Source: Candidatus Bathyarchaeota archaeon (GTDB lineage: Archaea > Thermoproteota > Bathyarchaeia > Bathyarchaeales > SOJC01). From it: DNA of 64,000 nucleotides. Shown here in pieces: positions 2,921-49,978 of this stretch. Each line of letters begins with the position of its first letter. Position 1 is the first letter of the stretch. Position numbers and translations under genes: made by a program. Under the pieces are notes generated by a model. It searched no databases and had not been told where the DNA came from. It saw nothing but the letters and a program-made list of their open reading frames with translations. The stretch is taken from contig JAOZHR010000010.1 of NCBI GenBank assembly GCA_026014805.1, forward strand, positions 62,001 to 126,000. The letters are read 5' to 3'.

Positions 2921-3235
2921 GGCTGGTGAGCTGGCGGATGGCTCCGAGCTTACTGAGAGCTTGAGGAAACTCCGTCCACCGTGCAGACTTGCAATATCCG
3001 TTAAGGATTTAGGGCGAGAGTCCTGGCAACAGAACAGAAACGAAACGTCCGTCCGTGCGTGTGACGATGATGCATGATAAGTTGCTGAAGGATGCTGGAT
3101 GTGAAGCGGTGAAACGGCTGTCCTGCAAGGTGAAAGGGCAAATAGACGCTTATGAGGACTGCATGAAGCGTGGGTAGCCCGATTAGCTGAATGCCATCTT
3201 TGAACAGAAGGCGGGTTACGACCAGTACACCAGCC
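2921..3235 (+). ncRNA. rnpB: RNase P RNA, archaeal type A
   Basis: The catalytic RNA that trims tRNA 5' leaders. The ends pair as the P1 helix: GGCTGGTG (2921-2928) with CACCAGCC (3228-3235). Conserved blocks appear in the right order: GAGGAAACTCCGTCC (CR-I), AGGGCGAGAGTCC, the ACAGAAACGAAACG region, then GGGTAGCCCGATTAGCTGAA and GAACAGAAGGCGGGTTA near the 3' end (CR-V). The length of about 315 nt is typical of type A. It is followed within 55 bases by an integrase gene, and its 3' end recurs elsewhere in the window, so it appears to be the target of integrative elements while staying complete. Confidence 0.93.
3211..3235 (+). repeat. putative attachment site at rnpB 3' end
   Basis: The last 25 bases of rnpB contain GGGTTACGACCAG followed by TACACCAGCC. 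Close variants occur at 47431, 49955 and 57291. An integrase gene starts 55 bp downstream. This suggests the 3' end of rnpB serves as attB/attL for several elements. Confidence 0.5.
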
Positions 3236-3289: not shown

Positions 3290-4633
3290 ATGCGGTTCTT
3301 TGAAGAGTTGCTGAAGTTAGATTCTGATTGGAGAACTTCTGAGTATGCTAGTGTTGAGATGTGGATTCGCAGGTTGCGTCGCAGAGGATCCGTCTCAACT
3401 TCAATGGCCTATTTCAAGTTGCTGGCTTGGTTTGTTAGGTTTACAGGGCTTTCCCCTGATGAGTTTGTCAAGTTGCCGAAGGATGATGTGGCTTTTAAGG
3501 TTCAAAGTTTTTGTGACAGGTTTAGTGATGAGGGTAAGAATAGCACGGCTTTGAATGCTATGAAGGCTTTGAAGAGTTTTTTGAAGGCTAACAAGTTTAA
3601 GCTTGAGGAGTTAGAACTTGACAGTTCCTACAGAGTTATGAAGAGGCCTGAATATGTGCCTAATAAGGAAGAAGTTTACAGAATGGCTACTGTTTGCGGC
3701 TTGAAGTGGAGGGCGATAATCTTGTGCTTGTTTCAGTCTGGCTTGAGGAATAGTGCGTTAAGGGCTTTGACGTATGAAATGGTTAAGGATCAGCTGGAAA
3801 GCGAAGGGTTTCCAATAAGAGTCCACATAACCAGTGAGTTGAGAAAGGTACTCCCAGATGCCTGCAAGGAAGGCGTGGATTACTGGACATTCTTCGGCGC
3901 TGAGGCAAGCGAAGCGTTAAGGCAATATGTGAATTGGAGGAGAGAAAAACGTGGAAAGACCGAAGAGGACGAGCTGCTGTTTCCTTCTGATTCAAGGAGC
4001 TTAAGCAAAGAGGATCGGCTGAAGAAGCCCATGGACCAATGGCATTTAACGAGGATTGTAAAGAAAGCTGCTCGGAGAGCAGGAATCAAGAAGTGGCATA
4101 CCGTAAGAGCTCATAGTCTAAGGAAAACATTCAGATCGGTTCTAGACAGTGGGTATGTCGACGGGGGACAAATGGCAGAAGATGACAAAGAGTATCTGAT
4201 GGGGCACAAGCTTCCAGGAGCCAAGGCACCATATCACAACGCAAACGTAGACGTCCTAGCTCAGAGATATATGAAACTGAATTGGGCACACGTGCACACT
4301 TCTATCGAACAATTAAGAAAGAAACAAGTTGTAGACATGGCGAAGCTACTTGGGTTTTCAGACGAGAAAATAAAGAAAGTTGAAGAAGCCCTAGCCAAGT
4401 ACGAAAAAGTAGACGAAGCACTTGAAGAAATCAAGAAGCTAAGCCTTGAATCCCACAAAGAAAACGACGAAAGAAACAGCGTGAACAATTATAATGGAAA
4501 TGGAAACTGCAGCAAAAGTGAAATCACAATAGTTCAAGGAGAACAAAAGCTAATCAGATTCATGAGTGAAGGTTGGGACCTTGTTAAAGAGCTGTCTAAT
4601 GACCGGTTCATACTAAAGAATTGTTACAACTGA
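3290..4633 (+). CDS. tyrosine recombinase (integrase)
   Basis: A 447-residue site-specific recombinase. An N-terminal SAM-like core-binding region (about 15-105) precedes the catalytic domain. The catalytic arginine is in SGLRNSALRAL (R153). The HxxR box is HSLRKTF (H275, R278), followed by MGHK (H306). The nucleophile tyrosine lies in APYHNANVD or QRYMKLNW (Y315 or Y327). A C-terminal extension of about 100 residues is predicted coiled coil and ends in an Asn-rich linker. The 5' half of the gene uses TTG/TTT-rich codons and the 3' half is A-rich. Its position at the rnpB 3' end identifies it as the integrase of an element using that site. Confidence 0.85.
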   Translation: MRFFEELLKLDSDWRTSEYASVEMWIRRLRRRGSVSTSMAYFKLLAWFVRFTGLSPDEFVKLPKDDVAFKVQSFCDRFSDEGKNSTALNAMKALKSFLKANKFKLEELELDSSYRVMKRPEYVPNKEEVYRMATVCGLKWRAIILCLFQSGLRNSALRALTYEMVKDQLESEGFPIRVHITSELRKVLPDACKEGVDYWTFFGAEASEALRQYVNWRREKRGKTEEDELLFPSDSRSLSKEDRLKKPMDQWHLTRIVKKAARRAGIKKWHTVRAHSLRKTFRSVLDSGYVDGGQMAEDDKEYLMGHKLPGAKAPYHNANVDVLAQRYMKLNWAHVHTSIEQLRKKQVVDMAKLLGFSDEKIKKVEEALAKYEKVDEALEEIKKLSLESHKENDERNSVNNYNGNGNCSKSEITIVQGEQKLIRFMSEGWDLVKELSNDRFILKNCYN

Positions 4634-4769
4634 TTCCATGTAAGCTTTCAAAATGTCTGCAAAAAAAGACCCACTGCTCTCCAAAAAACGTGAAATAGCC
4701 CCCACTGATATCTCCTAAAAAGCAGCCGAAATCCTACAAAAAGTGGCCGGGGTGAGGTAGCCTCGACTG

Positions 4770-4866: not shown

Positions 4867-6234
4867 CTATAGTTTCATTTCTTCTCTTCTCAAATATTCC
4901 TTGTACATTTGACGAATATATTTTTGGTCAATTACCTCAAATCGAGGATTCTTTGCGCTATTTGATGCTACTCTTCTAATCTCTTCGATAACAAAAGGAG
5001 CTGTTTCACACGGATTCAAATAGAGCACTAATGCATGGTCAATAGAAAACAGTGACCCACACTGGCGGTATAATACATCTCCTTCACCCCTTTGCCTTGA
5101 AATAGGATCTGCCTTTATAACGATATATACGCCTTGTTGCAGTGAATAGATTACTTTGTCTGCTATCTCATATCCAGAATGCAGTTTTGGTTCAGTATTT
5201 GTTAATTTCGCAAGAATTCTAATCCAACAATCTCCTTGCTTTTTTTCCATACAATCTCTACACTCGTTTTCAGACACACTAGGTTTGCATTTTTCTCTTA
5301 TTTTGGTTACATAACTCTGAACCTCAAGAGCGTTATCCTTAGGATTCAAAAACGGAAACAATTCCTGAAATTTGAAAAAGGTGGAAGGTGTCAAATTCCT
5401 TGCCAAAACACTTTGGATATTGTCCTTTTTTGTTTCATCCGCACATATGAAACAGGCCTCAAGAATCATAGGAGAGCATGACCAATCGACGTGGTGTACA
5501 CTATTGAGGGCGTGAATGAAGCGATTTGCTATTATTTCTTTGATTCCTGATTCTGTAAGATCTTTCAACCATTGCATTCTTGTTATCAACCGAGCCAAAA
5601 TAAGAATCTGTCTGCGCGCGTAGTTTTCAACTGGATTTTGGATCCAATTCATCAATTTTGAGACAATTCTAGCACGTAGTTCGCCATGCCCTTCATATTG
5701 CCTTAATGCCTTGAGATATATCATCAGGTGATGAGGACTTAAATCTCCATTTTGAACATGTTTTTCCAATTGAGAAGGAAGCCGCTCTTTTACATCAACA
5801 TATTGGTTAGGCAAGTGTGCAACAGCGGAGGCTAACATAAAATCTACCCACCGCGTATTTGGTGATCTCATGGCCCTTTCCAAGAACCTTTTGGAATATA
5901 TTAGAAAATCTTCTTTCGCGGATTCATTATGAGGAAAACCAAACCCTGCAACTATTTCGAATGCTGTTGTCCACTCTAACGAATTTTGTCTTTCATTGCC
6001 TCTTTCAGTAGGATCACGATACTTATAGTAATCATTTGCTGGATCTCTTTTGAAAAGATTCGGATATCTTTCTAGATAGTTTTCCCATTCTTCCCCCAGA
6101 GTTCTAAAGAGGTAATAAGAATTCAAAAAGAAAGTCTTTACGCCATATCTCGGCTCTTCGATGCTTTTCATATACTTATAGTAATTTTTGTTATGTTTGG
6201 TTATCCAATAATTAGTTAGATCTAAGTAGTTCAT
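4867..6234 (-). CDS. hypothetical protein, helical body with possible nuclease-like C-terminal domain
   Basis: A 455-residue protein not recognised as a named family. The first 300 residues are helix-rich and repeat-like. Next comes a cysteine cluster, CRDCMEKKQGDC. The last 110 residues have a mixed alpha/beta look: HSGYEIADKVIY, GVYIVIKADP, then ALVLYLNP and a helical tail. An acidic residue followed by an I-K-A strand resembles a PD-(D/E)XK-type core, but this is weak. The start overlaps the end of the upstream nucleotidyltransferase gene by 4 bp, so the two are translated together and probably form one functional module. Confidence 0.65.
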   Translation of the reverse strand: MNYLDLTNYWITKHNKNYYKYMKSIEEPRYGVKTFFLNSYYLFRTLGEEWENYLERYPNLFKRDPANDYYKYRDPTERGNERQNSLEWTTAFEIVAGFGFPHNESAKEDFLIYSKRFLERAMRSPNTRWVDFMLASAVAHLPNQYVDVKERLPSQLEKHVQNGDLSPHHLMIYLKALRQYEGHGELRARIVSKLMNWIQNPVENYARRQILILARLITRMQWLKDLTESGIKEIIANRFIHALNSVHHVDWSCSPMILEACFICADETKKDNIQSVLARNLTPSTFFKFQELFPFLNPKDNALEVQSYVTKIREKCKPSVSENECRDCMEKKQGDCWIRILAKLTNTEPKLHSGYEIADKVIYSLQQGVYIVIKADPISRQRGEGDVLYRQCGSLFSIDHALVLYLNPCETAPFVIEEIRRVASNSAKNPRFEVIDQKYIRQMYKEYLRREEMKL

Positions 6235-6659
6235 CCTCTTCCCTTCTGATACAATACTGAAAAGCCATGCTTGAAAGAAGTGCTCAAAGAAGACTCGCCC
6301 TCTATTATTGATATTAATTCATTATAGGTTATGATTGATACGTCAATTTTGATGTCTTCATTCTCAAGGTTTTCTTTCAGTCTTTTATACAATTGCTCCA
6401 AAGGCCAGAAAGCTGCTTTGGAAGATACGCACACTATATCCAAATCGCTGTTTTTTTCTATCGAAAACTTTGCACTCGAAATAGTAGAACCATGTAGTAT
6501 TAACATTATCGGAGATAAAAACTCAAAATAATTCATCAGTTTATGTCTGGAAATCCCATTTGGCAGCATATTTGGATGGAATTCAACATGAGATTCGATA
6601 TTTGCCAGTGCATTAACTAATAATTCATAGTTTTTGATCATTCTCGACAGCACGTACAC
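6231..6659 (-). CDS. nucleotidyltransferase-domain protein (MNT-like)
   Basis: A 142-residue protein with a polymerase-beta-type nucleotidyltransferase fold. The hallmark GST...DLD motif is visible: HGSTISSAKFSIEKNSDLDI at about residues 54-73, with a later strand IKIDVSIIT that can supply the third acidic residue. Minimal nucleotidyltransferases of this type often act as antitoxins or as AMP-transferring partners (family knowledge). Here it is first in a two-gene unit, overlapping the next gene by 4 bp. The partner is not an evident HEPN protein, which makes the pair unusual. Confidence 0.7.
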   Translation of the reverse strand: MYVLSRMIKNYELLVNALANIESHVEFHPNMLPNGISRHKLMNYFEFLSPIMLILHGSTISSAKFSIEKNSDLDIVCVSSKAAFWPLEQLYKRLKENLENEDIKIDVSIITYNELISIIEGESSLSTSFKHGFSVLYQKGRG

Positions 6660-6849
6660 TTCAGTTGTTTGTTTTTGATATTCGATTACTAATTATTAAC
6701 TATTAACCAAAATCGAATCCGTACCGTGATTAGGCGTTCGACATTAGCGGTAATTGCCCGAATGCACACGCTACACTAAATAAATAGTACTATTCCATGA
6801 TTCGTCGTTCAGTATTTTATTAGTAGTTGCAGAAACGGAAGCAGGAAAG
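6660..6849. other. intergenic, AT-rich
   Basis: Upstream region of the nucleotidyltransferase operon. AT-rich blocks near 6685-6705 and 6775-6790 could hold its TATA element on the minus strand. No gene is seen. Confidence 0.4.
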
Positions 6850-6902
6850 TTTTGGGTTGGGGTGGGATTTGAACCTCCCACAGAGGAGATATCTCCCGAT
6901 AT
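6850..6902 (+). repeat. dispersed palindromic repeat, copy 2 (left half, with tRNA T-arm-like sequence)
   Basis: On the minus strand this reads as a tRNA-like 3' end (GGTTCAAATCCCACCCC) preceded by the palindrome GGAGATATCTCC (6885-6896). No matching 5' half of a tRNA is present. The right part of the repeat is missing here and is found at 10590-10617, so the DNA between may be an insertion into one repeat copy. Confidence 0.6.
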
Positions 6903-7047
6903 GAGACTCTAAATGTCTGTTATCTTCCAACCTATAGATGTACTCCCTGCAATAAAAAGAGATATGGAAGTAAGTTCTAGAATATTTGAAGAGAGACTAC
7001 ACACAGAAATTTTAAAATAAGTGTAACATAATAAGGAGTAGTAGATG

Positions 7048-7124
7048 TGGCGGGACCGAGAGGATTTGAACCTCTGTTTTAGACTTAGCAGGTCCACGAT
7101 CTTTCCTGGCTAATCTACGGTCCC
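7048..7124 (-). tRNA. tRNA with anticodon GCU (serine codons AGC/AGU), class I shape
   Basis: A full cloverleaf folds on the minus strand. The acceptor GGGACCG pairs with CGGTCCC, followed by U8-A9. The D-stem is GATT/GATC with a GG-containing loop. The anticodon stem TGGAC/GTCTA has one G-U pair and the loop CTGCTAA. The variable loop is AAAC. The T-stem AGAGG/CCTCT carries the loop TTCAAAT. Discriminator G and an encoded CCA follow. All canonical positions fit. The oddity is a 4-nt variable loop where serine tRNAs normally carry a long arm. It sits inside the putative mini-element, 13 bp from the RHH gene. Confidence 0.8.
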
Positions 7125-7137
7125 GCTGAATGTGTTA

Positions 7138-7419
7138 CTATTCACCTGGGAACACACCACGATTTGTGAAGCGAGTCATTCTTGAGACAAATCGTTCAAA
7201 AGTCCGACATTGGTCGTTCACATTGACATTAACGTCTGGGGTGTCTCTTCTACCTGCAACATGATATATCTCCGTCATAAGGTCAGAAACAACTCTGACG
7301 CACTCCTCAATTGTTGAACTGTAGCTTCTAAATGTAGCATCTTTCATAATTCTTTCCAACCGTTCGAATGCTTCATCGGACAACGTAATGCGAATAGATT
7401 TGAACTCTTCTTGGGACAT
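7138..7419 (-). CDS. ribbon-helix-helix (CopG-like) DNA-binding protein
   Basis: A 93-residue protein. Its N-terminus has the RHH pattern: a beta strand (FKSIRITLSDEAFERLERI) and then two helices (YSSTIEECVRVVSDLMTEI). Such proteins dimerise and repress their own promoters. A perfect inverted repeat with arms AGGGACAT/ATGTCCCT lies 14-32 bp upstream of the start codon, and a third GGGACAT half-site overlaps the start itself, which fits autoregulation. The gene is transcribed toward the tRNA at the left edge of the mini-element. Confidence 0.75.
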   Translation of the reverse strand: MSQEEFKSIRITLSDEAFERLERIMKDATFRSYSSTIEECVRVVSDLMTEIYHVAGRRDTPDVNVNVNDQCRTFERFVSRMTRFTNRGVFPGE

Positions 7420-7432
7420 TTAGAATCCCTCT

Positions 7433-7451
7433 AGGGACATCATATGTCCCT
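7433..7451. promoter_or_regulatory. operator, inverted repeat AGGGACAT-CAT-ATGTCCCT
   Basis: A perfect 8-bp inverted repeat with a 3-bp spacer, between an AT-rich box (about 7452-7464, minus strand TTTTAACATTATA) and the RHH start codon. It overlaps the likely transcription start, as expected for an autorepressor operator. Confidence 0.7.
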
Positions 7452-8090
7452 ATAATGTTAAAAGCTTTGTGATCATTTCTGGTGCTTCCCTAGGATAAGT
7501 GTTCTCTTATCTTCTTTCTAACAGTTCTTCTCTGGATCCTATGTTTGAAGGATGGATCTAACTGTGCGACTGTCTCTCAGCGTTCTCTACCGTTCGCCAG
7601 AACACTTAAAGTGTTAAGAAGCTCAATCTATCCTTCCTTTATATCATAATTCCTAGGAGAAGCTAACACCTATATCGTTATAGTACTACGACCACCCCCC
7701 ATGTACTTTCTATCCCCTGTTTCATTCATTATCCTGGTACTGTAGTCTTATTCTGTTATAGTAGAAGGTATCCTCTAGGTCAGATAACCTATAACACTAT
7801 AATAGGTAAAGGGAATAACTACTAAGATTCCAATCAACCAGATTCACCCTGCTGGACCCAGGCACTTCGAGTTAATAATCTAAGTTTCTACTCTCAACCG
7901 TTAAGAAGCTAACAGAGAGATTCTAAATGTACAGAGTGGCAATAGAGTCAAAGAACATAGAACAAGGAAACTTAAAAAATATTCTTCTAAGGAAGAGGGA
8001 AGAGAAGAAAGAAGATCTGGAAGGGGATAGAAATTGAAGAATAAGTTTTTTAGGTATCAGAAAAAAGAGAGAATGAGATTAGAAGGACTA
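7452..8090. other. long AT-rich intergenic, no gene seen
   Basis: About 640 bases with stops in all frames. TATA-like and short symmetric stretches occur (for example around 7670-7700 and 7790-7810), but no extended hairpin or iterated repeat could be made out by eye. It could hold the replication or maintenance locus of the mini-element; nothing in the sequence proves it. Confidence 0.35.
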
Positions 8091-8708: not shown

Positions 8709-9386
8709 TTGGTTTCAGTATCAGATCTAACAACCTATTCTTATTGCAAGAGGAAGGTCTGGTTATTAAGAAAAGCAAAGATACAAACTGGAGAAAGAGA
8801 TTGGAATTCAATCGTGAAATATCGTCTAATACGTTCTATATCGAATCTTGTAGACTCAAAAGATAAGATACATTCTTTGACTGATTTTATGTATGAGACT
8901 CTTCATGAAGTTCCAGGAGAAATAGTCGATACAGAGATATACTTAGGAAGAGAAAAGTTGTCTGGACGGATTGATGTCATTAGAAAAACAGAAGAAGGTT
9001 ACATTATTCAGGAAGAGAAATCATCCGATCCACCAATGGGCGATGGAGTGTGGCCAGACCATTTGCTACAAGTAAGTGCATACGCCTTTCTTGCGGGAGG
9101 TGGCTCTAGATATTCGCCTATAGTTGGTGCAATAATTATTTACAATGATTTGAAACCAAGAAAAGTGAAACCAAATCCAGAAAAAGCCAAAGATGTTCTT
9201 GAGAAGGTGATACATCTCTTGGAGAGTAATATTCTACCTAAGGCAGAAGAAAATGCTAAGAAGTGTCGCAAGTGTAATTATTATCCACTTTGTCAGATTC
9301 TGCCTCAAGAAGGAGAACTAGAAGATGCTGAAATAAAGAACCTCTTCACAAGAGGGAAAGAAGTTCTTAGCATTTCTAGAACCTGA
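8709..9386 (+). CDS. Cas4-like PD-(D/E)XK nuclease with Fe-S cysteines
   Basis: A 225-residue RecB/Cas4-family nuclease. It has the four-cysteine cluster signature of Cas4: C13 in SYCKRKVW, then C186, C189 and C195 in CRKCNYYPLC. The catalytic motifs are GRIDVIR (D89), IIQEEKSS (E102, K104) and QVSAYAF (Q121). Known members cleave single-stranded DNA ends. Cas4 proper trims CRISPR spacers, but no cas1, cas2 or array is present. Solo Cas4-like genes occur in archaeal viruses and plasmids. It lies inside the mini-element beside a recombinase, which supports a role in element replication or recombination. Confidence 0.85.
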   Translation: MVSVSDLTTYSYCKRKVWLLRKAKIQTGERDWNSIVKYRLIRSISNLVDSKDKIHSLTDFMYETLHEVPGEIVDTEIYLGREKLSGRIDVIRKTEEGYIIQEEKSSDPPMGDGVWPDHLLQVSAYAFLAGGGSRYSPIVGAIIIYNDLKPRKVKPNPEKAKDVLEKVIHLLESNILPKAEENAKKCRKCNYYPLCQILPQEGELEDAEIKNLFTRGKEVLSISRT

Positions 9387-9499: not shown

Positions 9500-10504
9500 C
9501 TATCTTTCTCCTAAGTACCACCTGATTACTTCTTCATCATCCATAGCATCATAGTCCATAGTAAAGCCTATTCCAGTTCCGTATCCTTGTTCTTTTAAGA
9601 TCTGTCTAAGAAACTTACCAAAGGCTTTAGTCATAATCTGTACAGTTTCTTCCAAGTTTCCTACTCTACCATTCGATTTAGGTTCTTCCATTCTAAGTGT
9701 ATTAGATATCTTCTTAGCATCCTCTACTAGACTAACTCCACGAATGTACGTCGCAATGCTAGGATCTATAGCCTTTCCAACCATCATCTTTAAAGACCAT
9801 ATATTGATCCCAAATTGTGTACCAGTTCTCATGAATAGTTTTCTACCTAGATGCCATCCAAAGACTTTACCATTAGTTTCTATACCAGCTTTCTTTGCTA
9901 GACTTTGTAATCTTCTCAGTAATTGTTTAGTTGTTATTCCCTGGAAGAGATACTTATTCTCTTGATCAATTATCCTAATGTACTTCGCCATTAGTTCCTG
10001 TAGTTCTGAGTCTATGAAGACATGAGCTACTACTTCTTCTTTGCCAGTTTTAACTAAGATTTCTATGGGATCACTGTCTGATACTTGGAAGTCTTTCCAC
10101 TCTAGTTTTACAGCATCAGAGATTCTAAGTCCTAAGAGCCATATCTTAACCATTACTTTGTCTTCTAAAGATCCTATCTTATACATCTCTCTAGCTTGAT
10201 CTATTAATAAAATATGGTCCCTGGTAGACTGCTTAGTTCCTCCTGCTCCTAGTCCCTTTCTAAGTTTGATATCTATATTGTTATACCTACAGAACTGGAT
10301 AACAGAGATTGTATAGGTTCTAGCAGTATTATGACAAAGTTTCTTCTTAATATCTACAAAGAACTGTTCAACTATCTTAGAGGGATCTTTCTCCTTCAAT
10401 AGATTATCAATAGGTTTACCATACCACGCAATGAACTTCTTTAGCCCAATAGCATAAGATCTCTTAGTCTGACCTGATACCTGAGATCCCAGGAAGGTTT
10501 GCAT
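9500..10504 (-). CDS. tyrosine recombinase (integrase) of the mini-element
   Basis: About 335 residues. Catalytic residues, numbered from the GTG at 10522, are R133 (LLGLRISDAVKL), HxxR H224/R227 (FGWHLGRKLF), a lysine in the K-TG beta hairpin (ILVKTGKE) and Y259 (ATYIRG). The ATG at 10504 is preferred because AAAGGA lies just upstream, while the GTG at 10522 is embedded in the purine-rich ribosome-binding region. The C-terminal 75 residues form an extra helical domain. This gene marks the right end of the mini-element, and the sequence beyond it (10590) is the right half of the palindromic repeat whose left half is at 6850-6902. Confidence 0.85.
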   Translation of the reverse strand: MQTFLGSQVSGQTKRSYAIGLKKFIAWYGKPIDNLLKEKDPSKIVEQFFVDIKKKLCHNTARTYTISVIQFCRYNNIDIKLRKGLGAGGTKQSTRDHILLIDQAREMYKIGSLEDKVMVKIWLLGLRISDAVKLEWKDFQVSDSDPIEILVKTGKEEVVAHVFIDSELQELMAKYIRIIDQENKYLFQGITTKQLLRRLQSLAKKAGIETNGKVFGWHLGRKLFMRTGTQFGINIWSLKMMVGKAIDPSIATYIRGVSLVEDAKKISNTLRMEEPKSNGRVGNLEETVQIMTKAFGKFLRQILKEQGYGTGIGFTMDYDAMDDEEVIRWYLGER

Positions 10505-10589
10505 TGTGTATATTCCTTTCACCTCCTGGAAGATTCAGTTTATGAATCTCTAATCAGGAGCTATGATATCAGACACGATATGTCTGTTA

Positions 10590-10646: not shown

Positions 10647-11825
10647 TTATACCAAATCTTCGACAAAGAAAAAGTCATGCCACGTTTTGAGCACTTTGGG
10701 AAAATTCTCTATTTCACTTTTTTCGATGAACCAGCGCTCTTCGTCGGAAAGACCTTCAATCTGTTTGATGAGTCTAAGGATATCTTCCTTTCTTGTGGAG
10801 AAATCGGATCTGAGTAGTTCCATCGCTTTTTCGCCATTCATCTTATTGTTTATCATGTTTGCCAAAAGGGCTGTTCGTGCAGCATAGAAACGAACATCGT
10901 CCCAGGCATAACTCATCCCTCGCACAAGAAGTGGAAGGAATCTTTGCAGACCTCTTCGTAATATCCTAAATTCCGAATGTGCTCGCGCGCGCTGTCCTTT
11001 CCTAGAATGCAACTTTTTTTCAATGATTTCGTCACCAACCTGTGGCGGTAGGCTTGCAACCTGGCATGTAAAAACCAAATCGTCGAAACATTCTCCCGGA
11101 GTGAACTTTCTACCGCGAACTCTTGACTGAATGGTCACAGCTTCATAGTACGCCTCAGCACATTCCTTGAAGCTGAAGTCAAGTTTTATGAGTTGGTTTA
11201 TATCGTGAAAATGTTTTGCGTATTCAAGGCCATTTCGACTATGTACTAATTGGCGGCCAATAGTTGTCGGGCCAATTGTGGAAATTTTGTCTCCAATAAG
11301 TGCTCCAACGGTTGGTGTTACGATTTCCACTTGGGAATCGAAAAAAGGAGTTTTTAGAGGGGTTTGAACAGTAGAAAATTCAGGCTTTATTCCCATCGCG
11401 TCAAGTAAGAAGACTCGGCTTCGGTCAGTGATAGGCGGTGTCTCAATTCTATAAAGGTAAAATGGGATCTCATCACTAATCCTTGCATCTCTTTGACTAT
11501 ATGAGAATCCCTCTTTATCAAATTTCTGAAAAACTCTTTCGAGAACATTTTCAAACTCTTCTCTTGATAGATCTACGCATATGTCAGCGTCGACGCTCAA
11601 TCTAGTCCATATACCCCTCTTACTACTCAATATGACTTGGACTGCGGATCCTCCTTTGAATATCAGATCTAATCCTTCCTCTACAAGTTGGCCAAGATAC
11701 TCAAGACTGAGGATTGCTCTCTCTAGATTAGGTATGCTTCTAATGCCTCCTTCTGACAAGAAAGAGCTAATCTCCTTAGGATCATATGTTGACTTTGTGC
11801 CAATTGTCTTAGCAGTGTCGATCAT
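10647..11825 (-). CDS. abiEii: AbiEii-like nucleotidyltransferase toxin
   Basis: A 392-residue protein of the AbiEii/AbiGii nucleotidyltransferase family, the toxin of type IV AbiE abortive-infection systems. The motif FKGGSAVQVIL at about 57-67 is the family's KGG(S/T) block, and TRLSVDADICV at about 75-85 supplies the D-x-D metal ligands. Family toxins transfer nucleotides to tRNA or other substrates to stop growth. Its start overlaps the antitoxin stop by 4 bp, the normal AbiE order (antitoxin first). A GCGCGCGC tract lies in frame near 10984. Confidence 0.8.
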   Translation of the reverse strand: MIDTAKTIGTKSTYDPKEISSFLSEGGIRSIPNLERAILSLEYLGQLVEEGLDLIFKGGSAVQVILSSKRGIWTRLSVDADICVDLSREEFENVLERVFQKFDKEGFSYSQRDARISDEIPFYLYRIETPPITDRSRVFLLDAMGIKPEFSTVQTPLKTPFFDSQVEIVTPTVGALIGDKISTIGPTTIGRQLVHSRNGLEYAKHFHDINQLIKLDFSFKECAEAYYEAVTIQSRVRGRKFTPGECFDDLVFTCQVASLPPQVGDEIIEKKLHSRKGQRARAHSEFRILRRGLQRFLPLLVRGMSYAWDDVRFYAARTALLANMINNKMNGEKAMELLRSDFSTRKEDILRLIKQIEGLSDEERWFIEKSEIENFPKVLKTWHDFFFVEDLV

Positions 11826-12649
11826 TCTTTATCAGCTCCTTTGACCATTGTCAGAATGTTACGAAGTGTCTCTTTTTCTCGTCTAATCCATAGAACGTCT
11901 TCAGGTACGCGAGAGCCGATTCTTGTGTCTTCTCTCTTGAGACTATAAAGGAAAATGAGCATTTCTCGAAAAAGACCTCGTCTCCCTGCATATCTCAGCA
12001 AACGATCAAAATTCATCCCGTCTCTTTCGACCATATTTGCAAATATGAGTCCAAGCTCGAAAAGATCAAAACTCAGGCCCATTCTAGTAGTAAGAAAATA
12101 CAAGTCTAACCATATCCGTTCGGGTGTGGGAATTAGATTGTTTTCAAACCAAACTAATCCGTAGAGTTCTTTCCTTTCAAGGATAAATATCGGCTGTTCT
12201 GGGTAGTAGGCATATTCTTGAAAATCTCTCTTGTATGGACGCAATACAGCATGATACCCTTTTTCTAACAGTGCATCACGGATACTCGCAGACAGCATCT
12301 TGGATGTTTCGACAAAAATAAGATCTCTGCCGACCGCGTAATGAGCATAGTCACCAAGCATGTTCAAAGACCAGACAACGAAATCTGCCATTGGGAAGCG
12401 CTCTCTGAGATCTTGCCCGAGTCGAATGAGTTCTGGAGTGGGTTTGACTATTGCGGTACTCCTTTTCCTGCGTTGATATACCCCTCTTCCTACTCTTTTG
12501 ACGATTTCCATTCTTGCGAGTCGGCTTAAGTAGTTCTTTGCTGTTATCCAAGAAACGCCTAGGTCTTTTGCGATGTCTTCTATTGAAACTGTCTCATTCT
12601 TCGAGACATATTCTATCACTTTTTGTGGCACTGATGATGAAGATCTCAT
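11822..12649 (-). CDS. abiEi: AbiEi-like antitoxin with winged-helix N-terminus
   Basis: A 275-residue protein. The N-terminal wHTH spans about residues 5-65 (VSIEDIAKDLGVSWITAKNY followed by the wing around VGRGVYQ). The rest is an alpha/beta domain as in AbiEi-type antitoxins, which bind their own promoter. It overlaps the toxin gene by 4 bp. Direct repeats of ATATCGA immediately upstream of the start are candidate operator half-sites. Confidence 0.75.
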   Translation of the reverse strand: MRSSSSVPQKVIEYVSKNETVSIEDIAKDLGVSWITAKNYLSRLARMEIVKRVGRGVYQRRKRSTAIVKPTPELIRLGQDLRERFPMADFVVWSLNMLGDYAHYAVGRDLIFVETSKMLSASIRDALLEKGYHAVLRPYKRDFQEYAYYPEQPIFILERKELYGLVWFENNLIPTPERIWLDLYFLTTRMGLSFDLFELGLIFANMVERDGMNFDRLLRYAGRRGLFREMLIFLYSLKREDTRIGSRVPEDVLWIRREKETLRNILTMVKGADKE

Positions 12650-24017: not shown

Positions 24018-27014
24018 CTAATCTGCTCCCATAGTATTTTGCATTGCTCGTAAAGATGCAATAATTGCATTGTAAATGAGGCGAAGTACCTTATGTGCCT
24101 TGTTAGGGTCATCAACTCCAAGAACTTTTAACATTTCCATATCAAGTCTTTTTCTTTCTTTCGAAGGAGCAGTATACTGGTCAATAAGTGACGACCATTT
24201 GAAGTTTGAGAGTTCATCATATAGACTGATTAGCTGGGTTTTAGCAGAATCAGATAGCTTAGTCAGATCCAAGACTTGCATTTTTCGTAGCGGTTTCCCA
24301 TGCAGCTTCACCCATGACCCTCTTGTCACCGTAATTCTTGCAAGCAATAAGTAGAAGAAGATTGCTGAGTTCAGCCAGAGCACAATGATTTTCTCATCAG
24401 CCCGTGCTAGTCCAGATATTCCCCACATGAAAGAGCACATGAAGATTGGCCGATTACTACGAACCGCAAGCAATTTGGAACCAGGTGCCGCAAGATCAAT
24501 TCTCCCTGGCAAACATATTCGCGACGACCCAGATTCCACGACTTGGGGCCATTCTGCTCTAAATGCTTCTAAGGCAGTTCTGGCTTTTTCTTCACTCAAA
24601 ATTGCGTAAAACAACTTTTTATCTCCAGTAAATGGCTTAATAATCACAAAGTCTCCATGTCCTGTCAATTCAAATCTGTTTACGTAGGCAAATCTTCTAA
24701 GAGCAGCGGTTACTACGTCCTTTGGTACCACGAATACGTCTCCTGTGCCCTTGTCGCGAAAATGAAAACTCTCCTTAGTCTTATCTTTGTAAATAAGACG
24801 GTCATGTTTCATGAGGGCTCTTTCTTCAGTTCTGCAAGCTACCAGAGCATCTCCGCCAAATCTAGTCAGTGAATGCCCTTTACCTGTCCTGCTTCTTCCA
24901 TGCACTACCTCGGCAACCTTCAATTCAAGAAGTTGAGCTTCTTCAAGGTGAGCAAATGTAGTAGTAAGACCACTATGTTCTATGATTCTGTGAAGCTCGT
25001 CACCAGCCACCTTGTACCTTTTGTCTAGGTCGGCAACTAGACGCGTTAAGGTTTTGCCTTCAGGAAGCAATTCGCGTTGATTAAAAGATGTTGCAACGCA
25101 TAAATTCGTTTCCAACCGTTCTCCTGTCGCTGCGCATTTTTGAGCCATATCAGCGATACTTTCGACATCAGCCACAGACCAAGACGTAGGTGAGGTCTTT
25201 GTCAGCAAAAGTACAGAATTGTGAGAATCTGTCGGAATTTTCTTCTTTGCAACAAATAACATTTCTGAGAACATTGTGTTCTCAGAGAAAGCAGAACGCC
25301 CTTGTCCGATTACTATATACTCGATAGAGTATTTTGAGACTAGAAACCTAGTCAGTTCACTGAAGTCGCCGCCAATAAGAGTTGTAAAGGGCATCACGAC
25401 TGCCATTCTTCCATTAGAAGTTAGAAACTTGTCCGCAATGCATATGAAATAGAGATGATACCCAATATTCCCTTTCACAAGCGAAGCATAACGTGGATTT
25501 GCTCTGAACCTTCTCTTCAGGTCATCTTTATAGGTTTGTGACATTCTGCGTGAACTTGTAAACGGTGGGTTCATTATGACTACGTCAGCTTGATTTAGCT
25601 CAAAGCTTTCGTTTGATCCGTGACCTACAATAACGGCACCGGACCTTGCAAGCTCTGATCTTTTAATTTCATGACGCCCATTTCTGAAAGCATCAATTTT
25701 TCTTTGACGAAAGGCATCTCTGATCGTTTCGCCAAAAGGTTTAATTTTTGTACCAACGCGTGCTCGGGTGGAATCTATCGTCGCTATTTGCAAATGTTCT
25801 GTGTAACTCAATGGTTCTTGTAGTAATAATTGAACTGCAGCTAGATGAGCTGAGAAGGCCATTACATCGAGACCAGTGAGCTGCTCTTGCAGAAACGTTT
25901 TATGCAATTCAACTGCTTCTTTTTTGGAAGCTCGGGACAGCTTTTTCTTTCTATGATATGCCGAAACCAGAAGAGTTCCACTTCCACAGGCGGGGTCAAG
26001 AACACGCACTTCAGGGTCAAGAATTGAAAGTGCCGCAAGGAGATCTCCCGCTGCAGAATTTGTGTAAAATGCAGCGACAGTCTTACGGAATTCAAGAGGA
26101 ATGATCTCATGGAAAACTTTGCCGATTAGGTCGTGTGTTGAGACTGAGTGGATCAGTTCTTGGATTAACCGAGTCACTCTTAGAGAACCATCTTTGCTCA
26201 GTTTTGGATCGAAAAGCGAGGCCACATCGACCTCAAAAATTGGGCGATAATTCTTTTCCAAAACTTTTGAAAAGTAATTGTTCTTGATGTTTAATGGGGA
26301 AGACATATCCTCAACATCAATCTCGGGATAGAATCCGGTCTCTCGACGAAGAATATAATAGAATAGTAGCTGGTTGACAAAAAGAAAGGCAGCTGCCCTA
26401 CTAAGCACAATCTTTTGTTCTTCTTTCGGTATAGAATCGGAAAGAACTGAGTCAAAAAAGTTGACTCCTCCAAAAACTTTCTTGAGTTTGTTCTTGCTTG
26501 CTTTTCTAGCTGATACATGAAGAATGTCAACACCTTGACGGAGTAACCTTACAACAGATGCATCAGAAGGCTCGAGGGGTTGCTTTAGAAAATCGATTCT
26601 TTTCTGAATTACTTCATGAATTATCTCAATTACACCATCAAATTTAGCAGCTCGCCATACCTTCCTTTCATGTTCAGGATTAGCCAAGAGATGCACGATG
26701 AAGGATTCCTTTCTTGAAGAAGGATAAACAACAGCGAAGACTTCACCCAAATTTGTTGTTGCGCCTATTAATTGTTGATATTCCTGCGCAGAAGAGAATG
26801 CATCAAATTCTTTACTCTCACCAAGCTTTCCACTAATGATGTGTGTACCTCCATCCATCAACGCAACATCTGGTTTTCTCGGTCGGCCTCTCAGAATGGG
26901 AAAATGTAACTCAAAATCAGCTGAAGCATAACCTTTTTTCCTCAATTTCTCTGCAAGCCTTGCATTCCAGGTGTTCTCCCCGGCTTTGCCCTGCGAAATT
27001 AGCGGAAAGCTCAT
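24018..27014 (-). CDS. single-chain restriction-modification enzyme (N6-adenine methyltransferase with N-terminal nuclease-like domain)
   Basis: About 998 residues. The SAM-binding motif VLDPACGSGTLLVSAY lies near 336-351 and the N6-adenine catalytic motif NPPF near 480, in type I/IIG order. The N-terminal 150 residues contain KPDVALMDGGTHIISGKLGE, compatible with a PD-(D/E)XK nuclease core (acidic residue, then a strand with K). The C-terminal 400 residues would be the target-recognition domain. The frame extends 21 codons upstream with a hydrophobic run, but the ATG at 27014 (MSFPLISQGKAGENTW) is the likelier start. It probably both methylates and cuts; the target site is unknown. Confidence 0.8.
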   Translation of the reverse strand: MSFPLISQGKAGENTWNARLAEKLRKKGYASADFELHFPILRGRPRKPDVALMDGGTHIISGKLGESKEFDAFSSAQEYQQLIGATTNLGEVFAVVYPSSRKESFIVHLLANPEHERKVWRAAKFDGVIEIIHEVIQKRIDFLKQPLEPSDASVVRLLRQGVDILHVSARKASKNKLKKVFGGVNFFDSVLSDSIPKEEQKIVLSRAAAFLFVNQLLFYYILRRETGFYPEIDVEDMSSPLNIKNNYFSKVLEKNYRPIFEVDVASLFDPKLSKDGSLRVTRLIQELIHSVSTHDLIGKVFHEIIPLEFRKTVAAFYTNSAAGDLLAALSILDPEVRVLDPACGSGTLLVSAYHRKKKLSRASKKEAVELHKTFLQEQLTGLDVMAFSAHLAAVQLLLQEPLSYTEHLQIATIDSTRARVGTKIKPFGETIRDAFRQRKIDAFRNGRHEIKRSELARSGAVIVGHGSNESFELNQADVVIMNPPFTSSRRMSQTYKDDLKRRFRANPRYASLVKGNIGYHLYFICIADKFLTSNGRMAVVMPFTTLIGGDFSELTRFLVSKYSIEYIVIGQGRSAFSENTMFSEMLFVAKKKIPTDSHNSVLLLTKTSPTSWSVADVESIADMAQKCAATGERLETNLCVATSFNQRELLPEGKTLTRLVADLDKRYKVAGDELHRIIEHSGLTTTFAHLEEAQLLELKVAEVVHGRSRTGKGHSLTRFGGDALVACRTEERALMKHDRLIYKDKTKESFHFRDKGTGDVFVVPKDVVTAALRRFAYVNRFELTGHGDFVIIKPFTGDKKLFYAILSEEKARTALEAFRAEWPQVVESGSSRICLPGRIDLAAPGSKLLAVRSNRPIFMCSFMWGISGLARADEKIIVLWLNSAIFFYLLLARITVTRGSWVKLHGKPLRKMQVLDLTKLSDSAKTQLISLYDELSNFKWSSLIDQYTAPSKERKRLDMEMLKVLGVDDPNKAHKVLRLIYNAIIASLRAMQNTMGAD

Positions 27015-27109
27015 AACTAAAACTATGAACAATGACTTAATATAAATATAGATTGTGTACTGCAGAAGTATTAACATGAGCTAGCCTTGAAAAACAAATT
27101 GGAGAGAAA

Positions 27110-27250
27110 TGTTTCAAGAAATTCTATTGATGCCAATTTTTTCCGAGTAGCTTTTGTTGATATTTGTGCCAATGCGTCTTAACATAGGGCCCTAGGCTTT
27201 CAATATTTGAACTCCAACGAAATCTCTTATAACAGTAGAGGAATAATGTA
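27110..27250 (-). pseudogene. gene remnant, homologous to remnant at 28876-29133
   Basis: On the minus strand a frame reads RDFVGV and then, after a one-base shift, SNIESLGPYVKTHWHKYQQ. This matches the C-terminus of the remnant at 28876-29133 (RDFVGVSDIKSLGPYVKTQW). Two decayed copies of one gene's tail therefore flank the OLD-like gene. Confidence 0.5.
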
Positions 27251-27302
27251 AAACAGCCACATCTACGAGGTTATTAGAACGCGTTTCCTAAAACATATAG
27301 AA

Positions 27303-28862
27303 GTGGATAATTATCTAAGCATCAAACATGCAGAACTACCCGAATTAAAAGATCTTAACATCATAATTGGTCCAAATAACTGCGGAAAAACAAGTATCCT
27401 GAGAGCTGTGAATTGGTTAAGTACTCTAACTTTGAGAGGTGGTACTCCCGGGTATACATGTAGAATCTGTAAGGTAGTAACGCAGAAAATCAAGAACCTC
27501 GATCCTTCTCTGAATGCTAATATCAATATCAGGGACAAATACTTGACAAAAGGGAAGGTAAAGCTGTGTTTTGGTTATGGGAAAGAGGGAGTCGAACATC
27601 TTTTACCTGAGCTATCAAAAAGGCGAAACTCTATTTCCACCTCTAGTGCTCTTGATGAAGGAACGAAAGTGCATCTGGCCAAAGAATTTGAGAAAGAGCA
27701 GGTTATATGGACTGAAGTGTCTAATAACTTATTAATACCTGAACATGTTTCACCGGTTATATGGAGTGATTTTAAAACAGCGATTCTTGATCACATGCTT
27801 TTTTGTCCAGATGAGAGACTTCAAAGCTATAAAGGTAAGCAGATCCATGAACATATTACTTCAAAGAATCTTGCAGCTACAGATGAGACCCAACTCATCG
27901 AATACCTGAAAGAATTCGTTGATCCCAACTTAGGGAACATTCGACACAATCTCGACTTGATAAGGACGCTAGATAAGACTGATTTTGATACTCCAATAAC
28001 AGAACAGGGTTCGGGTGTGAAATCTCTGATATGTCTGATGACTGATATAATTTCAGAATCCGAGACCAGGATTATTCTAATAGATGAACCTGAGCTTGGT
28101 CTAAGTCCTCTAGGGAAGCAAGATCTCTTGAGATTTTTACTCAACCAATGCAAAGAAAAGCAGGTTTTCCTAGCAACACATGATCCAACATTTGTCAATC
28201 CTATTCTTTGGAATAAAGAAAATGTCTCAGTTTACCTGTACTCACTCATTGACCAAAATTTTGTAAAAGTTAATTTAACAAAAAGCAAACAAGATCCCAA
28301 TTCCTTTGCAGGATTCCTTCCACATACAACAAGCTTAAAACAAGTCCATATTTATGTAGAGGGGACATACGACGTTTATACATTCCAGATTTTTCTGAGT
28401 AGATACCTAAAAAGATTCAGAAATTGGTATCAATTAATTAATAAAATAGGGATATTTCACTTAGCTGGAGATTTCTGGAGTCATCTACTGTATACTATCC
28501 CAAAAGGACCTTACATTTCAATAGTTATCTTGGATGGTGATAAAACAAATATCGCCACCAAAATAGTTAAAGAGTATTCTCAAATCGAAAAGAACCGATT
28601 TCAGCTTTTTGGAACCCTTGAGAAGCTTAGTAAGCTGAAGAGACCAAGACACTCAAATGCCTCGTCACCATGCCCAATTTATTGTTTACAAAGGTCTGAA
28701 ATCGAAGATTACCTTAAGCCTAGACCTTCTAAAAAAAGCGGATGTCCGACAGTGACTTATCAGATGGAAGGTATTCCTAAAGAGATTGTATGGTTGTTTG
28801 ATATAATTCTAAGATGGACAGGTAAGAAAATTGAGAAGCCCAGTGACTTCAATTTTAAATGA
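27303..28862 (+). CDS. OLD-family ATPase with TOPRIM nuclease domain
   Basis: A 519-residue protein of the OLD (overcoming lysogenization defect) family. Walker A is IIGPNNCGKTS (about 21-31), the ABC-type signature EQGSGVKSL, Walker B IILIDEPELGLSP (about 257-269) and the H-loop LATHDP. The TOPRIM domain has VHIYVEGTYDVYT (about 349-361) and ISIVILDGDKTN with the metal-binding D-x-D. Family members are nucleases with antiphage roles, some as part of Gabija-type or single-gene systems. No UvrD-like Gabija helicase is adjacent. The start is uncertain: the frame is open 17 codons upstream of the GTG. Confidence 0.85.
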   Translation: MDNYLSIKHAELPELKDLNIIIGPNNCGKTSILRAVNWLSTLTLRGGTPGYTCRICKVVTQKIKNLDPSLNANINIRDKYLTKGKVKLCFGYGKEGVEHLLPELSKRRNSISTSSALDEGTKVHLAKEFEKEQVIWTEVSNNLLIPEHVSPVIWSDFKTAILDHMLFCPDERLQSYKGKQIHEHITSKNLAATDETQLIEYLKEFVDPNLGNIRHNLDLIRTLDKTDFDTPITEQGSGVKSLICLMTDIISESETRIILIDEPELGLSPLGKQDLLRFLLNQCKEKQVFLATHDPTFVNPILWNKENVSVYLYSLIDQNFVKVNLTKSKQDPNSFAGFLPHTTSLKQVHIYVEGTYDVYTFQIFLSRYLKRFRNWYQLINKIGIFHLAGDFWSHLLYTIPKGPYISIVILDGDKTNIATKIVKEYSQIEKNRFQLFGTLEKLSKLKRPRHSNASSPCPIYCLQRSEIEDYLKPRPSKKSGCPTVTYQMEGIPKEIVWLFDIILRWTGKKIEKPSDFNFK

Positions 28863-47058: not shown

Positions 47059-47360
47059 CAGCCAACGTTTCCATTGCACACGCAGATAATACTCAATGTT
47101 GGGGCCTCACGCTGAGAAGACGCTGGAAGATATCCTCTCTGCTCTAGGGAACATCATGCCTACACATTTTCTAACTTTAGTGCGATTTCACCCACGAGGA
47201 CTTTTAAGAAAGCCGTTGAACACGAAAATAAGGAGCATAGTGGAAAGAAGGAATAGGCTTCTACAACAAACATCTGTTTCACCCTACCTTTTCAGCATTG
47301 CTAGTTGTCGTTGCTTCATAGCCCCTAAATACCTTTATCAAGGATCTTTCTTTGCCCGCC

Positions 47361-47453
47361 CTAGCCTAGTACAAGTTCTTTGGAATACAAGATTAAGAAC
47401 ACATAAAAATTCGGTAACCAGCCTCTTGAGGTTGGGAACGACCAGCACACCAG
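47361..47453 (+). repeat. direct repeat, left copy, with rnpB-3'-end-like tail
   Basis: The last 38 bases (47416-47453) match 57277-57314 with two mismatches; both end in a version of ACGACCAGCACACCAG. A less conserved match extends upstream (CCCTAGCCTAGTACAAGTTC here, CCCTAGCCTGGTAGGAGTTC there). The copies are about 9.86 kb apart and an integrase gene starts 44 bp inside the left one, as in an attL/attR pair. The 300 bases before it hold no gene. Confidence 0.6.
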
Positions 47454-47497
47454 TACCTTATTCGCGTAACCCGACCATAATCAACATACTAATCAAA

Positions 47498-48343
47498 ATG
47501 AAGAACAACGCCAAAAGCGACTACTCAATAAAATTCGTAGACAAATCACTAACATACATCAGCAAACACGCAGACCTAAACCAACCCGAACAAGTAAAAC
47601 ACTTCATAGCAAACAAAAACGTATCCAACGGATACAAAAAGAACCTATGCCTAGCATACAACAAATACTGCAAATACTACCAAATCCAATGGCAAATGCC
47701 AAAATACAGACCAGAGCCAAAGACAATCAAAATACCAACCAAAGCAAAGATAGAAATGCTAATCGCAAGAGCAGGCAAAACACTCGGACTCAAACTACAA
47801 CTCAGCAAAGAAACAGGATTAAGACCCGTCGAACTATGCAACCTCAAAACGAAGGACATAGACCTAGACCAAAGATTAATCCATCCAACAACAGCCAAAC
47901 ACGGCGCACCAAGAACACTAAAAATAAGCAACAGCCTACAAGCAAGACTAGAAAATCACATCAACACAAATAAGCTAAGACAAAATGACAAAGTATTCCA
48001 AGGCGACGCAGAACTATACGGGAAATACTACAGACAAATGAGAAACAGCTTAGCAGACAAACTGCACGACCAAACACTCAAAACAATCCGACTATACGAC
48101 CTCAGACACTACTTTGCTACAATGCTCTATCACAAAACAAGAGACATACTATACGTCAAACAACAACTAGGACACAGACGACTAGAAACGACACTAATCT
48201 ACACACAACTACTCAACCTAAATGACGACGAATGGACATGCAAAACAGCAACCAACGTCAAACAAGCAGAAACACTAATCGAAGCAGGATTCGAATACAT
48301 CGCAGAAAAAGACGGAACAATGCTGTTCAGAAAACGCAAATAA
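47498..48343 (+). CDS. tyrosine recombinase (integrase)
   Basis: 281 residues from the ATG at 47498; the longer frame upstream runs through the repeat and is not protein-like. Catalytic residues: R109 (ETGLRPVELCNL), a K in the THAKHG-like hairpin, the box YDLRHYFATM (Y200, R203, with Y replacing the usual first His), LGHRRLETT (H226) and Y235 (LIYTQLL). The + strand is extremely A- and C-rich and T-poor, unlike neighbours. The N-terminal half is homologous to the remnant at 56765-57000. The stop codon lies inside a 30-bp direct repeat. Confidence 0.85.
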   Translation: MKNNAKSDYSIKFVDKSLTYISKHADLNQPEQVKHFIANKNVSNGYKKNLCLAYNKYCKYYQIQWQMPKYRPEPKTIKIPTKAKIEMLIARAGKTLGLKLQLSKETGLRPVELCNLKTKDIDLDQRLIHPTTAKHGAPRTLKISNSLQARLENHINTNKLRQNDKVFQGDAELYGKYYRQMRNSLADKLHDQTLKTIRLYDLRHYFATMLYHKTRDILYVKQQLGHRRLETTLIYTQLLNLNDDEWTCKTATNVKQAETLIEAGFEYIAEKDGTMLFRKRK

Positions 48344-48356
48344 CCCTCTTTTTTCT
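48327..48356 (+). repeat. 30-bp direct repeat, left copy (integrase 3' end)
   Basis: Begins TTCAGAAAACGCAAATAACC and runs through CTC and T6 CT. It matches 48971-49000 with one mismatch. It includes the last codons and stop of the integrase gene. Confidence 0.75.
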
Positions 48357-48445
48357 AATTTCCTCCAATTGGCGACAAGGACTAACCAGTTCGGACTAAC
48401 TCGGATAGAGAAATCTAAAATACTATTCTCTAACTCTATTTTCTC

Positions 48446-48970: not shown

Positions 48971-49000
48971 TCAAAAAACGCAAATAACCCTCTTTTTTCT
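48971..49000 (+). repeat. 30-bp direct repeat, right copy
   Basis: Same as 48327-48356 with one mismatch, 644 bp downstream. Together they bracket the Nudix gene; the right copy recreates an integrase 3' end without an integrase. Confidence 0.75.
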
Positions 49001-49812: not shown

Positions 49813-49954
49813 AATCTTTACACGAGCTTCTAGTCATACCGTAACAAGCCAAAAAGCAGATAATAAAACAAGAAACACATGGTAAAACTGCAAAACATAA
49901 TGAGAACAAAGATAGGCAAAAGCAAAACAATAGAATATTACTAAGCCCTAAGAC

Positions 49955-49978
49955 GGGTTACGACCAGCACACCACCCT
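49955..49978 (+). repeat. rnpB-3'-end-like sequence (possible att remnant)
   Basis: GGGTTACGACCAGCACACCA matches the rnpB 3' end (3213-3232) in all but one position. It marks the left border of the SUOX/DUF72/PolB2 gene block. Confidence 0.5.

What the first reader, a model, noticed from the sequence alone, without database searches (positions are those of the whole stretch)
7048..7124. Class I tRNA with serine anticodon GCU on a mobile element
The cloverleaf is canonical throughout, with an encoded CCA, but has a 4-nt variable loop. Serine tRNAs are normally class II with a long variable arm that seryl-tRNA synthetase reads. The anticodon loop CTGCTAA is typical of tRNA-Ser(GCU). It may be charged with another amino acid (recoding AGC/AGU), be an att or decoy tRNA, or serve against tRNA-cleaving defences.
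Basis: partly seen in the sequence, partly recalled or inferred. Interest (0 to 1): 0.65.

Follow-up and report, generated by a model that had tools for sequence, protein, structure and literature searches.

The report
Arginine-type tRNA with serine anticodon
A mobile DNA island in an archaeon carries a complete, evolutionarily maintained tRNA gene that looks built to be loaded with arginine but reads codons that normally mean serine, so it may deliberately mistranslate proteins; that has not been tested in the laboratory.

Summary
The tRNA is real: a complete 77-nt cloverleaf with encoded CCA, anticodon GCU and a 4-nt variable loop, on the minus strand at 7048-7124. The host keeps its own class II tRNA-Ser(GCU) elsewhere. 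The gene is not a serine tRNA that lost its arm. Its nearest relatives are arginine tRNAs, and it keeps A20, C35, U36 and G73, the arginyl-tRNA synthetase determinants. Five stem pairs differ from those tRNAs on both sides while still pairing. A 92% identical copy with the same anticodon lies in another genus, again directly behind a small ribbon-helix-helix-like gene that is only 32% identical. The island (3233-49949) is bounded by a repeat of the RNase P RNA gene's 3' end. Element genes do not read AGY as arginine, so this is not code reassignment. Best reading: a regulated tRNA-Arg(GCU) that inserts arginine at AGU/AGC in competition with the host. Charging and function are inferred. The main rival is an attachment-site or other DNA-level relic, because the 73-nt 3' flank is as conserved as the tRNA. 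A survey found further class I GCU tRNAs in viruses and other genomes, most with A20: possibly an overlooked group.

The parts
7048..7124 (-). Class I tRNA, anticodon GCU (7087-7089), A20 at 7104, G73, encoded CCA at 7048-7050; tRNA-Arg-type body
7138..7419 (-). 93-aa ribbon-helix-helix-like protein (weak VAPB_antitox, E 0.004), stop 13 nt before the tRNA; 32% identical homologue precedes the G009 copy
   Evidence: AlphaFold model low confidence
7433..7451 (-). Palindrome AGGGACATATGATGTCCCT before the ORF; G009 has a different palindrome AGGAGCATAAAATGCTCC at the equivalent place: putative operator
   Evidence: sequence inspection
7457..7475 (-). TGATCACAAAGCTTTTAAC, identical core in G009 (TGATCACAAAGCTTTTA): putative BRE/TATA promoter of the RHH-tRNA unit
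   Evidence: functional reading is inference
6975..7047 (-). 3' flank of the tRNA, 69/73 identical to G009, no RNA structure beyond chance: unexplained conserved DNA element
6855..6938 (-). Second tRNA-like fold without D arm; its GGAGATATCTCC core belongs to a 37-copy dispersed motif of the host; part of it also follows the G009 tRNA
2926..3230 (+). Host RNase P RNA gene; its 3' end is the attachment site of the island
3208..3232 (+). attL-like repeat AAGGCGGGTTACGACCAGTACACCA
49950..49974 (+). attR-like repeat AAGACGGGTTACGACCAGCACACCA (23/25 identical to attL)
3290..4633 (+). Tyrosine integrase next to the RNase P RNA; also there in the congener G001 (about 95% DNA identity)
9500..10522 (-). 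Second tyrosine integrase
47096..48343 (+). Third tyrosine integrase, related to the integrase next to the RNase P RNA of G009 (73% DNA identity over 878 nt)

Best explanation
The gene encodes an arginine-family tRNA whose anticodon is GCU. It lies 13 nt behind, and is probably co-transcribed with, a small RHH-like gene that probably represses its own promoter, on an island integrated at the RNase P RNA gene. Shown: an intact cloverleaf, an arginine-type body, ArgRS determinants A20/C35/U36/G73, no serine arm, stem pairs kept through double changes, conservation of tRNA and anticodon in a second genus, island context, host tRNA-Ser(GCU) intact, no sign that AGY means arginine in element genes. 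Inferred: host ArgRS charges it with arginine because it reads bases 20, 35, 36 and 73 and not base 34; the ribosome then places arginine at AGU/AGC in competition with seryl-tRNA. It would thus be a regulated mistranslator, expressed under some condition that relieves the RHH protein.
For: Nearest non-self tRNAs are overwhelmingly Arg. Arg covariance model minus other-class-I model: +3.0 bits (window) and +2.4 (G009), against +12 to +18 for Arg tRNAs and negative values for every non-Arg tRNA scored. Acceptor pair 4-69, two D-stem pairs, one anticodon-stem pair and one T-stem pair are changed on both sides relative to Arg tRNAs yet still pair; 98.2% of cells paired. G009 orthologue: tRNA 71/77 identical, all six differences in the D loop and 26-28 region, RHH protein 32% identical. 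Arg determinants and the serine long-arm requirement: PMC9976931. Class I GCU tRNAs from viral contigs and GTDB genomes: A20 in 21 of 29 readable, against 49 of 468 other non-Arg and 50 of 52 Arg class I tRNAs.
Against: No expression or charging data. The adjoining 73 nt is as conserved as the tRNA, so selection may act on a longer DNA element. Only two orthologues exist in 257 genomes. The Arg-model margin is small. No dedicated synthetase was found near. Arginine at AGY, 1-5% of codons, should be costly. The A20 statistic counts related phage sequences more than once and rests on an automatic reading of position 20 (it misread the G009 copy).
Confidence: 0.45

Rival explanations
1. Attachment-site relic: an element that once integrated into a tRNA-Arg gene carries the tRNA with its flank as attP; the tRNA need not be used in translation and the anticodon change is drift.
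For: The 3' half plus 3' flank is the best conserved part; the flank is unstructured as RNA and so conserved as DNA. In G009 an integrase fragment lies about 50 bp beyond. Prokaryotic tRNA fragments are commonly att sites (PMC9897764).
Against: The gene is complete, with element-like sequence on both sides. No second copy of the 3' half on the contig. No other tRNA in 257 genomes matches the 25-nt 3' end with fewer than two mismatches. The island's att site is the RNase P RNA gene. Double changes that keep pairing argue for a working RNA.
Confidence: 0.22
2. Non-decoding RNA or decoy: the tRNA body absorbs a tRNA-targeting nuclease or nucleotidyltransferase, or regulates the element, with little charging.
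For: It lies in a defence-rich island (AbiEi/AbiEii, OLD/AriA-like ATPase, Csx1-like protein), and a nucleotidyltransferase-like ORF lies at 6231-6659.
Against: That ORF pair occurs in G001 without the tRNA, so the link is not conserved. An arginine body with a GCU anticodon fits no known tRNA nuclease that I can name.
Confidence: 0.15
3. Genuine serine tRNA without its arm, charged by a relaxed seryl-tRNA synthetase, boosting AGY decoding.
For: Anticodon GCU and G73 both occur in serine tRNAs.
Against: Body is arginine-type; SerRS depends on the long arm outside animal mitochondria (PMC9976931, PMC7609411). Element genes are not enriched in AGY.
Confidence: 0.05
4. Decaying pseudogene or chance cloverleaf.
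For: Rare and accessory; many phage examples in the survey look degenerate.
Against: Rfam 61.4 and 59.6 bits in two genera, tertiary-interaction bases kept, stems conserved through double changes.
Confidence: 0.08

Closest known systems
tRNA-ProX (ProA, ProN, ProT) of Streptomyces and Kitasatospora (PMC10365949, PMC11415595)
   Same: Natural tRNA whose body belongs to one amino acid and whose anticodon reads codons of another; shown to mistranslate in E. coli
   Different: Proline body, A34 and A33, paired with its own ProRSx; bacterial. Here arginine body, G34 and U33, no partner synthetase nearby, archaeal island. Because C35 and U36 are kept, ordinary ArgRS should suffice.
tRNA-Arg(CCU/UCU), archaeal
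   Same: A20, C35, U36, A38, G73, body sequence, class I loop
   Different: Wobble base G34 moves decoding from AGR (Arg) to AGY (Ser); 4-nt instead of 5-nt variable loop
tRNA-dependent lysogeny (PMC10865867)
   Same: Integrating element carries a complete tRNA
   Different: There the tRNA replaces the host tRNA broken by integration; here the target is the RNase P RNA gene and host tRNA-Ser(GCU) is intact
Allo-tRNAs (reviewed in PMC7609411)
   Same: Anticodon does not match body identity
   Different: Allo-tRNAs have 12-bp acceptor branches and serine identity; this one is a normal 7/5 class I tRNA

Membership tests
canonical tRNA-Ser(GCU) | anticodon GCU | tested here: met
canonical tRNA-Ser(GCU) | long variable arm (10 nt or more) | tested here: not met
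   4-nt variable loop; host class II copy has the arm
tRNA-Arg | ArgRS determinants A20, C35, U36, A/G73 | tested here: met
   alignment; determinants from PMC9976931
tRNA-Arg | body closest to arginine tRNAs | tested here: met
   (margin of the model test modest)
tRNA-Arg | anticodon for an arginine codon | tested here: not met
   GCU reads AGU/AGC
tRNA-Arg | charged with arginine | not testable with these tools
   needs aminoacylation assay
mistranslating tRNA of the tRNA-ProX kind | identity elements and anticodon for different amino acids | tested here: met
mistranslating tRNA of the tRNA-ProX kind | co-encoded variant synthetase | tested here: not met
   no synthetase among the 50 window ORFs scanned with Pfam
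mistranslating tRNA of the tRNA-ProX kind | measured misincorporation | not testable with these tools
   needs mass spectrometry
partial tRNA at an att site | partial gene with complete counterpart at the other end | tested here: not met
   complete gene, no second 3' half within about 110 kb of the contig
tRNA-dependent lysogeny | phage tRNA replaces a host tRNA of the same isotype disrupted at attB | tested here: not met
   att site is the RNase P RNA gene; host tRNA-Ser(GCT) intact
codon reassignment AGY to Arg | AGY at conserved arginine positions of element genes | tested here: inconclusive
   none seen in three integrases, catalytic Arg codons are AGA/CGN; HSLR motif Ser is AGY; not every gene was aligned to homologues

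The most novel reading that the evidence does not exclude
Mobile elements of bacteria and archaea repeatedly carry class I tRNA-Arg variants with a GCU anticodon that insert arginine at serine AGY codons. In this archaeal family the tRNA forms a two-gene cassette with an RHH repressor that switches mistranslation on, for example to poison an invading virus or a competitor element.
Probability: 0.12. Interest if true: 0.9.

Novelty: new variant of a known kind. Interest (0 to 1): 0.55.

Why it matters
Annotation by anticodon would file this as tRNA-Ser and hide it. If it is charged with arginine, it is a natural archaeal mistranslator on a mobile element, needing only one wobble-base change from a normal arginine tRNA and no special synthetase. 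The survey suggests that many phage and island 'tRNA-Ser(GCU)' genes of class I may be of this kind, which a charging assay could settle directly.

Tried and rejected
A conserved operon with the nucleotidyltransferase-like ORF and the 455-aa ORF downstream was rejected: G001 has that pair (92% DNA identity) without tRNA or RHH gene, homology stopping at 6706. AGY recoding in the element: no sign. tRNA-dependent lysogeny: not met. An att target tRNA for the 3' half: none in 257 genomes. Relatives of the RHH protein (window and G009 versions) or of the 455-aa protein in viral contigs: none. Similar DNA in phage and plasmid collections: none. The 3' flank as a structured RNA: no structure beyond shuffles. 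The RHH fold by AlphaFold: pLDDT 64, no meaningful PDB match, so 'RHH' rests on sequence pattern, operator-like palindromes and a weak Pfam hit. Papers: no report of class I tRNA-Arg with GCU found.

Full report
Observation. The tRNA is there exactly as described, on the minus strand at 7048-7124. It has a 7-bp acceptor, a 4-bp D stem, a 5-bp anticodon stem with loop CUGCUAA, a 4-nt variable loop, a 5-bp T stem, G73 and an encoded CCA. ARAGORN names it Ser by its anticodon only. The host is an archaeon (archaeal RNase P RNA in the window), held as a 1.79-Mb assembly in 32 contigs, 96.6% complete. It has its own class II tRNA-Ser(GCT) at C31:93536.

Which tRNA is it? In 61 genomes searched with the tRNA, apart from one near-identical copy the matches that ARAGORN can name are almost all tRNA-Arg. 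In a global comparison with 58 other host and relative tRNAs the best-scoring ones are nearly all Arg; the exceptions are intron-bearing calls whose anticodon assignment is doubtful. The window tRNA and its orthologue keep A20, C35, U36, A38 and G73. The literature gives A20, C35, position 36 and A/G73 as the arginine determinants, and a long variable arm as the main serine determinant outside animal mitochondria (PMC9976931). I built one covariance model from 11 arginine tRNAs and one from 12 other class I tRNAs of the host, neither containing the GCU tRNAs. The window copy scores 72.1 against 69.1 and the G009 copy 69.0 against 66.6. Arg tRNAs gain 12-18 bits with the Arg model and every non-Arg tRNA scored loses; most of the tRNAs on both sides were themselves in a training set, the two GCU tRNAs were not. 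The margin is small but its sign is unique. Host Phe tRNA has a similar body, but its synthetase reads a GAA anticodon (own knowledge).

Is it maintained? On an alignment with 11 Arg tRNAs, 98.2% of stem cells form standard pairs. Five pairs carry a double change that is shared by the two GCU tRNAs (A-U at 4-72, A-U at 11-27, U-A at 12-26, A-U at 33-43, A-U at 54-66 in alignment columns). The gene has therefore been under pressure to fold since it left the arginine tRNAs. The orthologue lies in G009, a different genus of the same family. The tRNA is 71/77 identical there and the anticodon is kept, while the preceding 93-aa protein is 32% identical. Only these two copies exist in 257 genomes of the class.

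Cassette. In both genomes the order is: a shared promoter-like stretch TGATCACAAAGCTTTTA, a palindrome just before the ORF whose sequence differs between the two genomes, a small RHH-like gene, about 13 nt, then the tRNA. This suggests an autoregulated RHH gene co-transcribed with the tRNA; it is inference, since the RHH assignment rests on a weak Pfam match and a poor model. The 73 nt after the tRNA are 69/73 identical and show no RNA structure. I cannot explain them; a binding site, a promoter or an attP arm are possible. The nucleotidyltransferase-like and 455-aa ORFs that follow are a separate cassette, since G001 has them without the tRNA.

Island. The RNase P RNA gene ends at 3230, and a 25-bp copy of its 3' end (23/25 identical) lies at 49950-49974. 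G009 shows the same arrangement with a shorter insert, and the element-side sequence before the second copy is shared (ATTACTAAG-CCTA-GACGGGTTACGACC). Three tyrosine integrases lie within these bounds. The integrase beside the RNase P RNA is shared with the congener G001, so the island is probably composite. The G009 tRNA copy itself lies on a different contig from the G009 RNase P RNA, beside an integrase fragment.

Recoding? AGY codons are 1-5% of codons in the island genes scanned, with no obvious depletion against the flanking genes. The catalytic arginines of the integrases are AGA/CGN, and the serine of an HSLR box is AGY. AGY therefore most likely still means serine, and arginine insertion would be mistranslation in competition with the host tRNA.

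How general is it? Among the 37 class I GCU tRNAs collected, position 20 is A in 21 of 29 readable cases, against 49 of 468 other non-Arg and 50 of 52 Arg class I tRNAs. The Fisher value of about 1e-13 overstates the evidence, because phage sequences are related, one clade has an odd D arm, and position 20 was read automatically. Some of these genes look degenerate. The trend still suggests that 'class I tRNA-Ser(GCU)' is often a changed arginine tRNA. I did not test other anticodon mutants of Arg tRNAs, so I cannot say that GCU is preferred.

Mechanism. ArgRS should accept the tRNA, because base 34 is not among its determinants; the ribosome would then read AGU/AGC. The closest tested precedent is tRNA-ProX, which mistranslates in E. 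coli (PMC10365949, PMC11415595). Why an island would carry this is open: diversification under stress, a weapon against invaders, or a by-product. The att-relic rival keeps real weight because of the conserved flank.

Noticed in passing
3208-3232 and 49950-49974; G009:C41 (L268) 2177-2196 and 8749-9057: The 3' end of the RNase P RNA gene appears to be the integration site of a ~46.7-kb archaeal island, with the same arrangement in a second genus. Paper searches showed no report of this site in archaea among the papers listed.
   Followed up: partly
4775, 6886, 15977, 20719, 50700, 55936 and 37 places genome-wide (L223-L252): Dispersed motif GGAGAYATCTCCCGCA followed by C-rich sequence and a T run, 37 copies against 1 for the reversed control. 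About a third of 30 copies are preceded by a tRNA 5' end (1-21) or an antisense tRNA 3' end: tRNA-derived, SINE-like repeats, split-tRNA-like pieces or an sRNA family.
   Followed up: partly
6855-6938 (-): D-armless tRNA-like fold with a UUA in the anticodon position (z -2.9); probably a member of the dispersed family and not a tRNA gene.
   Followed up: partly
L070, L084, L086, L107, L122, L126, L127, L129, L149, L174, L175: A clade of viral tRNA genes GGTGCGCAGGCAGCGGATACTTCTCCTGCTAAGAGAGAG with GCU anticodon, short variable loop and an odd D arm, recurring in many IMG/VR contigs.
   Followed up: no
8709-9386, 10647-12649, 24018-28862, 37470-38903: Defence-type genes on the island: Cas4-like nuclease, AbiEi/AbiEii pair, N6 methyltransferase with an OLD/AriA-like ATPase, Csx1-like protein.
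   Followed up: partly
4867-6659 (-): Nucleotidyltransferase-like ORF plus 455-aa ORF of unknown function, a cassette found at another place in G001 with 92% DNA identity.
   Followed up: partly
48331-48357 and 48973-49000: About 27-bp direct repeat AAAACGCAAATAACCCTCTTTTTTCT at the end of the third integrase and 640 bp further; also after the G009 integrase.
   Followed up: no
4344-4657; G001:C20 95793-96102: In the congener G001 the 3' end of the RNase P-adjacent integrase is present a second time about 2 kb downstream, as if an insertion had duplicated it.
   Followed up: no
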